Source: Elusimicrobiaceae bacterium
GTDB lineage: Bacteria > Elusimicrobiota > Elusimicrobia > Elusimicrobiales > Elusimicrobiaceae
Reading direction: 5' to 3'
Length of the DNA stretch: 64,000 nt
Assembly (NCBI GenBank): GCA_016281355.1
Contig: JAEEIL010000012.1
Coordinates: forward strand, 62,001 to 126,000
The position numbers and the translations under genes were made by a program. Below the pieces are notes generated by a model. That model saw nothing but the letters and a program-made list of their open reading frames with translations, had not been told where the DNA came from and searched no databases. Positions 7,006-9,713 of this stretch are shown here, piece after piece. How positions within the stretch are numbered: the stretch's first letter is position 1; every line of letters starts with the position of its first letter.

Positions 7006-8841
7006 ATGATAGATATTTCAGATTTAAGTTATCACATAGGCCTTCGCCCTATTTTTGAGGATGCTTCTTGCTTTATTGCCGACGGTACAAAAACCGGTCT
7101 TGTCGGCTTAAACGGTTGCGGTAAAACTACATTATTTCGCCTAATTCTTGGGCAAATTTACCCTGATGGCGGTAAAATTACCATTAGTTCCGGCACGCAA
7201 ATTTCAACGGTAGAACAGGAAATTAAAGATACTAATCTAACTCCGCTTGAATATGTTTTGCAGGCAGATAAGCGGTTAAAAGTTTTGTATGATAAACTTA
7301 CTACCGCGAAATCAGGCGAAGAAATTGCCGAAATTTACGATAAATTAAATAACCTTGGTGCAAACAGTGCAAGTGCGCGTGCAAGTGCAATTTTGGGCGG
7401 TCTCGGTTTTTTGGATGAAGAATTAAAAAAGCCTTTAAAGGAACTTTCCGGCGGTTGGCGTGTTAGGGCAAGTTTGGCAGCGGCCTTATTTGCACCGTCT
7501 GACATTTTACTTCTTGACGAACCTACAAACCACCTTGACCTTGAAACATCAATTTGGCTTGAAAGTTTTTTAGAGAAAACCGATAAAACCCTCTTTTTAA
7601 TCAGCCACGATAGAAATTTACTTAATAAAATTTGCGAAAAAATTATTTTGGTTGACGAGTGTAAACTAAAAACTTATACCGGCAATTATGATACTTATGA
7701 ACGCACCCGCCATAATCAAACCGAGCAAATTATAAAAGATGCAAAACGCTATGAGGAAACACGCAAACATTTGCAAAGTTTTGTGGACCGTTTCCGCTAT
7801 AAAGCCACCAAAGCCAAGCAAGCGCAAAGCCGTTTAAAAATGCTTGAGCGTATGGGGGATGCCCCAAAAATTCCGATAGAAAAAAGTGTGCGTTTTTCAT
7901 TTCCTGAGCCTGAACTTTTGGATGCATATTTGTATACTTTAGAGCAAGTTTCTTGCGGTTATAATGATACACCCGTTTTACAAAATATTGACCTTACTAT
8001 CGGCGCAGAAGATAAAATTGCCTTGCTCGGCGCAAACGGTAACGGTAAAAGTACGCTTGCAAAATTGCTTGCCGGGTTACTGCCCACAATGTCAGGTAAA
8101 TTAACTTATGCACGCAAAATAAAAGTGGGTTATTTCGCCCAGCATCAGACGGAAGTTTTTGACCTTGATAAAACACTTTACGAAGTTGCTAAAGAAAAAA
8201 TGCCCGAAGCAAAAGAGGCCGAGGTTTACACACATCTTGCTTGTTTTGGTTTGCAAAAAAATAAAGCGGATACAAAAATCGGCAGCCTTTCAGGGGGGGA
8301 AAAGAGCCGCCTATTACTTTCAATAATCACAATCGCACGCCCGAATATTTTAATTTTAGACGAGCCTACAAACCATTTAGACATAACTTCCCGCCGTGCT
8401 TTAAGCGAAGCCTTAAACAATTACAGCGGTGCGGTTATTTTGGTTACGCACGATTTTAATTTGCTGGAAGAGGTAACAGACCGCCTTCTGCTTGTTGCTA
8501 ACGGAACGGTTCAAAATTATGAGGGGGATTTGGAAGATTATAAAAACTTCGTCTTACACGGTGGCGGTGCAAGTGCCGCACAAAATAAAGCAGACATTAA
8601 AAAAGAACGCCGCAGAACCGCGGCCGAACTCCGCGCACAGGCTGCACCTATAAAAAAGCAAATCAAGGAAATTGAAAAGAAACTTGATAAATTAACAAAT
8701 CAAAAGCAAAATATTGAAACACGTCTGACCACACAATTTAACACCGATTTAAGCATAGAACTTGCCTTTATAAATAAAGAAATTGCCGACCTTGAAAGCA
8801 AATGGCTTGAACTTACCACTGATTTGGAAAATCTAAAATAA
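7006..8841 (+). CDS. ABC-F family ATPase (ribosome-associated, Uup/YheS/YdiF-like)
   Basis: 611 residues with two ABC ATPase domains and no membrane segments. The first has Walker A GLNGCGKTT (34-42), signature LSGGW and LLLDEPTNHLD. The second has GANGNGKST, LSGGEKSRL and LILDEPTNHLD. A linker between the domains contains the basic helical stretch typical of ABC-F proteins (FVDRFRYKATKAKQAQSR), and the C-terminus is a Lys/Glu-rich coiled coil as in Uup. ABC-F proteins act in the ribosomal E site to rescue or tune translation. Which subfamily it belongs to cannot be settled by eye. It directly follows typA. Confidence 0.93.
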   Translation: MIDISDLSYHIGLRPIFEDASCFIADGTKTGLVGLNGCGKTTLFRLILGQIYPDGGKITISSGTQISTVEQEIKDTNLTPLEYVLQADKRLKVLYDKLTTAKSGEEIAEIYDKLNNLGANSASARASAILGGLGFLDEELKKPLKELSGGWRVRASLAAALFAPSDILLLDEPTNHLDLETSIWLESFLEKTDKTLFLISHDRNLLNKICEKIILVDECKLKTYTGNYDTYERTRHNQTEQIIKDAKRYEETRKHLQSFVDRFRYKATKAKQAQSRLKMLERMGDAPKIPIEKSVRFSFPEPELLDAYLYTLEQVSCGYNDTPVLQNIDLTIGAEDKIALLGANGNGKSTLAKLLAGLLPTMSGKLTYARKIKVGYFAQHQTEVFDLDKTLYEVAKEKMPEAKEAEVYTHLACFGLQKNKADTKIGSLSGGEKSRLLLSIITIARPNILILDEPTNHLDITSRRALSEALNNYSGAVILVTHDFNLLEEVTDRLLLVANGTVQNYEGDLEDYKNFVLHGGGASAAQNKADIKKERRRTAAELRAQAAPIKKQIKEIEKKLDKLTNQKQNIETRLTTQFNTDLSIELAFINKEIADLESKWLELTTDLENLK

Positions 8842-8851
8842 AATTTGGGTC

Positions 8852-8879
8852 TTGACATTTTTAGAAAAACCTTTATACT
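8852..8879 (+). promoter_or_regulatory. Consensus sigma-70 promoter driving a small RNA
   Basis: TTGACA (8852-8857), a 16-base spacer and TATACT (8874-8879). No start codon with a long frame follows; instead a structured non-coding stretch and terminator do. Confidence 0.85.
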
Positions 8880-8885
8880 ATAGTA

Positions 8886-9052
8886 TATCCGCGGAGGCCG
8901 TTTCGGGCGGGTGTTGTGTGAGGTGGCAGCGGTGCCCCTACATAGCGTTAAGCCCCCTTGAAGAAGTTGAGCTGGCGGATTAAAAGGAAATGTGTATAAT
9001 GACGAAAGTCTATAACTAACTAACCCTCGTGGAATACCGAGGGTTATTTTTA
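8886..9052 (+). ncRNA. Structured small RNA of about 165 nt, identity unresolved (6S-like fold possible)
   Basis: This stretch is framed by a consensus promoter and an intrinsic terminator and is locally GC-richer than its surroundings. By hand it folds as a rod: closing stem ATCCGC (8887-8892) with GCGGAT (8975-8980); inner stem GGGC (8905-8908) with GCCC (8952-8955); an open bubble; and an apical hairpin of about 12 bp (8915-8928 with 8933-8944) capped by a GCGG tetraloop and carrying two single-base bulges. Closing stem, central bubble and apical stem, plus the size, recall 6S RNA, but I cannot match conserved 6S positions. The SRP tetraloop and asymmetric loop are absent, and tmRNA motifs are absent. 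Presence of an RNA gene is well supported; its family is not. Confidence 0.7.
9021..9052 (+). terminator. Terminator of the small RNA
   Basis: TAACCCTCG pairs with CGAGGGTTA around an 8-base loop, followed by TTTTTATT. Confidence 0.9.
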
Positions 9053-9068
9053 TTGTAAATTTTCCGTT

Positions 9069-9713
9069 TTAATTATTAGACGACATTAAATTCATCAAAC
9101 TGATAAACAGGTTAATAATATCAAGGTAAATACTGATAGCAAAATTTAAGGCTGTATCCCAATTATTTGCATCTGCGACTGCTTTAAGTTTGGCAAGGCG
9201 GTTAAAATCAAAAAGTAAATAACCCGTAAAAATTAAAACCCCCAAACCTGCCATAAATTTTTGACCGCGTATGCGGACAAAAATTCTAATCAAAGAATAA
9301 ATCACTAAAATTATAAGTGCGATAAATAAAAATTTGCCCAACCATTCAAAATCAAGGCCGCTGTACATAGCAATTAAACCCGTCAAAAAAGCAGTTAAAA
9401 CCGTCAAAGAAAGTGCTTTTTGCGCTGTATCATTATGTGCGATAAAATAAACACCTAAAGTGAAACCGCTTGACGCTGTAAAAAGTACCATCAAGATCAT
9501 ATTTAACGGGAAAGCCGTTCTCACAAACATTAGTACTAAAAATACAATGATGTTTATTATTATCGCAAAAAGCGAGTATTTTTTTATTGCAGGATAATCT
9601 TGCATTTGCAAGGCCCTGTTAAACAAGCGTGCCGCAAACATGCAGGCAAGCCATGCGACCGTTAAGGATGCGGTCAATATTATGAAAGTTTTTGACATTA
9701 GTGTTTCAAACAT
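9069..9713 (-). CDS. Bax inhibitor-1/YccA family membrane protein
   Basis: 214 residues with seven hydrophobic helices covering nearly the whole chain. The closing region (LLFDFNRLAK then ALNFAISIYLDIINLFISLM) matches the conserved last two helices and re-entrant acidic region of the BI-1/UPF0005 family, which includes the pH-gated calcium-leak protein BsYetJ and the FtsH-interacting protein YccA. It sits in the inner membrane. The gene stands alone, convergent with the small RNA and divergent from the C_GCAxxG_C_C gene. TAGGGGGAT precedes its ATG, and a dyad overlaps its predicted transcription start. Confidence 0.88.
   Translation of the reverse strand: MFETLMSKTFIILTASLTVAWLACMFAARLFNRALQMQDYPAIKKYSLFAIIINIIVFLVLMFVRTAFPLNMILMVLFTASSGFTLGVYFIAHNDTAQKALSLTVLTAFLTGLIAMYSGLDFEWLGKFLFIALIILVIYSLIRIFVRIRGQKFMAGLGVLIFTGYLLFDFNRLAKLKAVADANNWDTALNFAISIYLDIINLFISLMNLMSSNN

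What the first reader, a model, noticed from the sequence alone, without database searches (positions are those of the whole stretch)
8852..9052. Independent structured RNA gene of about 165 nt without clear family
Seen: consensus promoter, no open frame, a hand-foldable rod with closing stem 8887-8892/8975-8980, bubble and 12-bp apical hairpin with GCGG loop, and a strong terminator. The architecture and size suggest a divergent 6S RNA, but I cannot match conserved 6S positions; SRP RNA and tmRNA signatures are absent. It follows typA and an ABC-F gene, so a translation-linked role is also possible.
Basis: partly seen in the sequence, partly recalled or inferred. Interest (0 to 1): 0.6.

Follow-up and report, generated by a model that had tools for sequence, protein, structure and literature searches.

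The report
New small structured RNA of Elusimicrobiaceae
A small structured RNA gene that matches no family in the RNA catalogue is kept by most sequenced members of one bacterial family (Elusimicrobiaceae), and every complete copy ends in a tiny start-and-stop reading frame, so it may be a new regulatory RNA that touches the ribosome.

Summary
Window 8887-9051 (+) is a stand-alone RNA gene: near-consensus promoter, covarying rod, intrinsic terminator. It belongs to a family found only in Elusimicrobiaceae (Elusimicrobiota): 77 of 90 family genomes carry it (75 complete, 2 cut by a contig end), with no convincing copy outside the family among 340 phylum genomes. Across 76 complete copies (74 distinct) 94.9% of pair cells are paired and 32 of 42 pairs show changes on both sides (0 of 500 shuffles reach this). 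No Rfam 15 family matches.

It is not 6S: no model match, no wide central bubble; genuine 6S in other classes of the phylum looks different. tmRNA lies elsewhere. Hfq and CsrA were found in 0 of 90 family genomes. Flanking genes vary, so it is not a leader.

Unexpected: in 76 of 76 copies the 3' third holds a Shine-Dalgarno-like GGA, an AUG and a 5-11 codon frame whose stop lies at the terminator; the peptide is not conserved. Best reading: a trans-acting RNA with a bulged binding site in the rod and a ribosome-loading start-stop module. Structure and conservation are shown; expression, translation and function are inferred.

The parts
8852..8879 (+). sigma70-type promoter TTGACA-16-TATACT
   Evidence: 11 of 12 consensus matches; 66 of 76 copies have a best upstream site of 9/12 or better, 10 have 8/12, and in some of those 10 the best-scoring site is misplaced
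8887..8980 (+). rod domain; closing stem 8887-8892/8975-8980
   Evidence: covariation; fold
8909..8955 (+). conserved core: stem 8909-8912/8952-8955, 5-nt 3' bulge 8947-8951 (GUUAA), stem 8913-8918/8941-8946; wobble pairs U8912-G8952 and G8916-U8943
   Evidence: G-U at the second pair in 74 of 74 distinct rows, U-G at the first in 72 of 74
8925..8936 (+). apical hairpin GGCA-GCGG-UGCC
   Evidence: loop sequence not conserved between genera
8982..8988 (+). Shine-Dalgarno-like AAAAGGA in the linker
   Evidence: GGA-type site before an AUG in 76 of 76 copies; predicted unpaired 0.84 in this copy
8999..9019 (+). micro-ORF ATG ACG AAA GTC TAT AAC TAA (an in-frame ATG also lies at 8990)
9001..9010 (+). 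small hairpin GAC-GAAA-GUC inside the micro-ORF
   Evidence: arms swapped in a second genus, pairing kept
9013..9023 (+). TAACTAACTAA, stop codons in all three frames
   Evidence: sequence; same string in 11 of 14 genus-g1 copies (output)
9021..9054 (+). intrinsic terminator with T run
   Evidence: helix 7 paired in 100% of cells

Best explanation
An independent RNA gene of a family confined, on present data, to Elusimicrobiaceae. The transcript of about 165 nt has two parts. The 5' two thirds fold into a conserved imperfect rod whose wobble-flanked 5-nt bulge is probably the binding site of a protein or other partner. The 3' third is mRNA-like: a Shine-Dalgarno-like site, an AUG, a few codons and a stop that sits at the terminator. 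I propose that the RNA works in trans, without Hfq or CsrA, and that a ribosome or 30S subunit loads on the micro-ORF and stops at once, coupling the lifetime or activity of the RNA to translation. Shown by comparison: gene borders, structure, family, distribution, conserved start-stop module, no conserved downstream gene. Inferred: expression, ribosome loading, partner binding and the coupling.
For: Covariation. Promoter and terminator in the copies. Nearest downstream ORF of 80 codons or more is on the opposite strand in 20 of 30 loci, same strand in 9, absent in 1, and gene identity varies. Start-stop module in 76 of 76 copies; with the last stop kept, shuffled linkers pass in 1.7-2.8% per genus. 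Length differences before the stop in genus g2 stay in frame and at least one of two in-frame AUGs is always kept. In genus g1 indels shift the frame, but stops exist in three frames in 11 of 14 copies. Hfq 0 of 90 and CsrA 0 of 90 family genomes.
Against: Peptide not conserved; the variable codons in g2 mostly keep their third base while the first two vary, the opposite of a coding pattern. The AUG overlaps a conserved hairpin, and the last UAA overlaps the terminator's A tract, so RNA constraints alone could keep much of the module. The criteria of the shuffle test were set after seeing the data, and the copies are related. The SD-like site is predicted mostly unpaired (over 0.5) in 62 of 76 copies, not all. 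No expression or ribosome data. 13 of 90 family genomes show no copy, among them nearly complete ones (G003 96%, G088 99%).
Confidence: 0.45

Rival explanations
1. A purely non-coding structured RNA (RNP scaffold or antisense regulator). The SD-like site, AUG and stop are by-products of a conserved linker, hairpin and terminator A tract and are not translated.
For: No peptide conservation; hairpin kept with swapped arms; stop overlaps the terminator stem.
Against: Start-stop module in 76 of 76 copies despite sequence turnover, low shuffle frequency, three-frame stops reaching upstream of the stem in 11 of 14 g1 copies.
Confidence: 0.33
2. Orphan cis element: a riboswitch or attenuator whose expression platform is the micro-ORF and terminator.
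For: Aptamer-like bulged rod followed by SD, ORF and terminator.
Against: No conserved downstream gene, mostly convergent neighbours; in L036 the RNA is inverted relative to the ABC-F gene.
Confidence: 0.07
3. A highly divergent 6S RNA, or a functional stand-in for it as Ms1 is in mycobacteria.
For: No canonical 6S over cut-off in own family, order or class; single-copy rod RNA with a strong promoter and similar length to phylum 6S (155-162 nt).
Against: No RF00013 match; no wide central bubble; 3' micro-ORF; not found in the other families of the order that also lack 6S.
Confidence: 0.06
4. The peptide itself (5-11 aa) is the product.
For: In-frame maintenance in g2.
Against: 34 different predicted peptides among 76 copies, no common core between genera.
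Confidence: 0.05
5. A replacement of SRP RNA.
For: No SRP RNA found in the own genome with RF00169 or in 39 genomes with RF01854; rod shape.
Against: No Rfam SRP match at the locus; apical loops neither GNRA-type nor conserved; PMC7987157 (passages seen) reports that few Elusimicrobia have SRP protein homologs at all.
Confidence: 0.04

Closest known systems
6S RNA (RF00013), including the copies in other classes of Elusimicrobiota
   Same: Single-copy rod RNA of about 160 nt
   Different: No model match, no wide central bubble, extra 3' start-stop module; phylum 6S has a long CCCUGCGGUGUUGGUG-type closing stem
ORF-bearing small RNAs (SgrS, Spot 42, SR1; recalled, no call)
   Same: Structured RNA carrying an SD and a short frame
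   Different: No Hfq in the family; the frame is only 5-11 codons, its peptide is not conserved, and its stop sits at the terminator
Ms1 RNA of mycobacteria (PMC4191392, passages seen)
   Same: Lineage-specific RNA where canonical 6S is not found
   Different: Ms1 binds core RNA polymerase through a central bubble; no such bubble here and binding untested

Membership tests
6S RNA | Match to RF00013 above gathering score | tested here: not met
   (these loci), 0 of 18 genus genomes
6S RNA | Wide central bubble between two long stems | tested here: not met
   consensus folds and pair counts
6S RNA | Binds RNA polymerase holoenzyme, templates product RNA | not testable with these tools
   needs pull-down
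SRP RNA | Match to SRP models, conserved apical tetraloop domain | tested here: not met
   apical loops variable
tmRNA | tRNA-like domain and tag frame | tested here: not met
   ARAGORN finds no tmRNA in 12 of 12 family loci scanned; one-piece tmRNA elsewhere in the genome
Hfq-dependent sRNA | Hfq in the host | tested here: not met
   PF17209 0 of 90 family genomes; positive controls ring
CsrA/RsmA decoy RNA | CsrA in the host | tested here: not met
   PF02599 0 of 90; positive controls ring
Riboswitch or leader RNA | Conserved downstream gene on the same strand | tested here: not met
   opposite strand in 20 of 30, same strand in 9, none in 1, varied identities
ORF-bearing small RNA | SD, start codon, in-frame stop conserved | tested here: met
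   76 of 76 copies
ORF-bearing small RNA | Translated, conserved peptide | tested here: inconclusive
   peptide not conserved; translation not testable here

The most novel reading that the evidence does not exclude
In a lineage with no recognised 6S RNA, SRP RNA, Hfq or CsrA, this RNA is a new class of ribosome-docking regulator: a rod that binds a partner and a start-stop decoy mRNA that loads and releases ribosomes, so that ribosome supply sets the RNA's level or activity.
Probability: 0.15. Interest if true: 0.8.

Novelty: new variant of a known kind. Interest (0 to 1): 0.52.

Why it matters
It adds a strongly supported RNA family to a phylum for which the paper searches here (listings only) showed no study of small RNAs. 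It comes with related puzzles: own family, order and class show no canonical 6S, the family shows no Hfq or CsrA, and SRP RNA was not found. A conserved start-stop module whose peptide does not matter would be an unusual way of linking an RNA to the ribosome.

Tried and rejected
6S, SRP RNA, tmRNA, Hfq-dependent sRNA, CsrA decoy, riboswitch or leader and peptide gene were considered and rejected or ranked low as given under rivals. RF01849 (alpha tmRNA) gave only sub-threshold hits in the own genome; RF00023 then found a one-piece tmRNA. R1 and R2 matches of about 20-42 bits inside and outside the family were inspected for six places (G002, G003, G008, G089, G107, G331): most of what aligns is the terminator, so I did not count them; the other low-scoring places were dropped without inspection. 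Viral contig scans with two patterns gave 0 hits. In the genome-record pattern scan 14 records matched; one, titled delta proteobacterium (L072), has no R2 match and was dropped as chance. G064 holds two copies on two contigs; whether paralogue or contamination is not resolved. Rows dropped before the count of 76: the two contig-end copies (G051, G059).

Full report
What is there. Window 8852-9054 (+) holds a promoter (TTGACA-16-TATACT, 11 of 12), an RNA of about 165 nt from 8887, and an intrinsic terminator. Upstream are TypA (TIGR01394 over cut-off) and an ABC-F protein (NF000355 over cut-off); downstream, on the other strand, a membrane protein with a sub-threshold match to the MAG0110 family. 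Rfam gives only two tRNAs in the window at gathering thresholds, and at E up to 10 in 8600-9300 only seven sub-threshold matches, none on the + strand within 8887-9051; the best is a His-leader-like match on the other strand around the terminator.

Who carries it. Blastn finds it in 13 of 18 genomes of the genus. A covariance model from those (R1) and a second one from 30 copies of three genera (R2) extend it to the family: 75 genomes with complete copies of 90 bits or more, plus two copies cut by a contig end, that is 77 of 90 family genomes: genus g1 14 of 18, g2 60 of 66, g3 3 of 3, g4-g6 0 of 3. In 340 phylum genomes every other match was 42 bits or less; the six places inspected align mainly at the terminator. 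A pattern scan of named genome records gave 14 hits; 13 are confirmed by R2, 12 of them titled Elusimicrobi- and one 'uncultured bacterium'. E-values of R1 and R2 are rough; I rely on bit scores and on the gap between complete copies (90.7 bits or more) and the rest.

Structure. Within g1 17 of 42 pairs, within g2 16 of 49 pairs, and over the 76 complete copies (74 distinct) 32 of 42 pairs show changes on both sides that keep pairing; percentage paired and covariation score exceed all 500 shuffles and all slid controls. Against this, in g1 the number of further pair types does not exceed shuffles (500 of 500 as high) and in g2 only weakly (50 of 500). The A4 and A5 alignments were fitted to the model, which favours it; A1 and A3 were aligned by sequence alone. 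The most constant part is the middle: a short stem, a 5-nt bulge on the 3' side, and a 6-bp stem, with a G-U wobble in 74 of 74 and a U-G wobble in 72 of 74 distinct rows. Constant wobbles beside a bulge look like a recognition site; that is inference. Genus g3 has the same core with a longer closing stem and a 5' extension.

The 3' module. All 76 copies have a GGA-type Shine-Dalgarno-like site, an AUG and a short frame whose first stop lies within four bases of the last CTAA or CTAG before the terminator. Peptides vary: MKMTYMS in 13, MIMTLMS in 8, MTKESITN in 2, MSKLTN in 1, and 34 kinds in all. In the window the frame is MTKVYN, or MCIMTKVYN from an AUG that lies too close to the SD. In g1 a string with stops in all three frames precedes the terminator in 11 of 14 copies, and indels there do shift the frame. 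In g2 length changes are in frame. Keeping the last stop and shuffling the 46 bases before it, 1.7% (g1), 2.7% (g2) and 2.8% (g3) of shuffles pass a test that all 76 observed copies pass; the test was defined after inspection and the copies are related, so this is support, not proof. Against coding: variable codons mostly keep their third base, and a conserved hairpin overlaps the AUG, with arms AUGAC/GUC in g1 and GUCAU/AUGAC in g2.

What it is not. 6S: 0 of 18 genus genomes over cut-off; in the phylum 34 of 340 are over cut-off and none of these is labelled same family, order or class. The 12 phylum 6S RNAs inspected look different. tmRNA: a one-piece gene with tag GNTNNTVWAAA lies elsewhere. 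Hfq and CsrA: 0 of 90 each, with positive controls. Leader: neighbours vary and the nearest downstream ORF of at least 80 codons is on the opposite strand in 20 of 30 loci, same strand in 9, none in 1. SRP RNA: the locus does not match.

How it may work. The conserved parts are a rod with a candidate partner-binding bulge and a start-stop site without a conserved peptide. I therefore propose a trans-acting RNA whose activity or lifetime is coupled to ribosome loading, at 0.45; the main rival, at 0.33, is a plain structured RNA in which the start and stop are incidental. No expression or binding data exist here.

Novelty. Six literature searches (listings only) showed no paper on small RNAs of this phylum; one structured-RNA survey of human microbiomes does not mention the phylum (PMC8040213, term search only). 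Subscription papers and preprints were not searched.

Noticed in passing
own genome G000 and 38 relatives: No SRP RNA found: RF00169 0 matches at E up to 1 in the own genome and RF01854 0 of 39, although controls ring in 13 and 10 of 14. PMC7987157 (passages seen) reports that few Elusimicrobia have SRP protein homologs.
   Followed up: partly
phylum survey: Canonical 6S RNA is over cut-off in 34 of 340 genomes, none labelled same family, order or class; one weak partial match in the class (G091). Suggests loss or strong divergence of 6S in this class.
   Followed up: partly
90 family genomes: Neither Hfq nor CsrA detected in any of 90 Elusimicrobiaceae genomes.
   Followed up: partly
G000:C16:39838-40183: One-piece tmRNA with tag peptide GNTNNTVWAAA.
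   Followed up: no
L138 positions 280-330 (G002): A terminator preceded by GGACAAAGAGTC-like sequence resembling the 3' module of the RNA, without rod; possibly a remnant or chance.
   Followed up: partly
L042, L043, L053 (genus g3): A 5' extension of roughly 40-75 nt lies between the promoter and the rod; tRNA-Met and tRNA-Thr genes lie nearby in each.
   Followed up: partly
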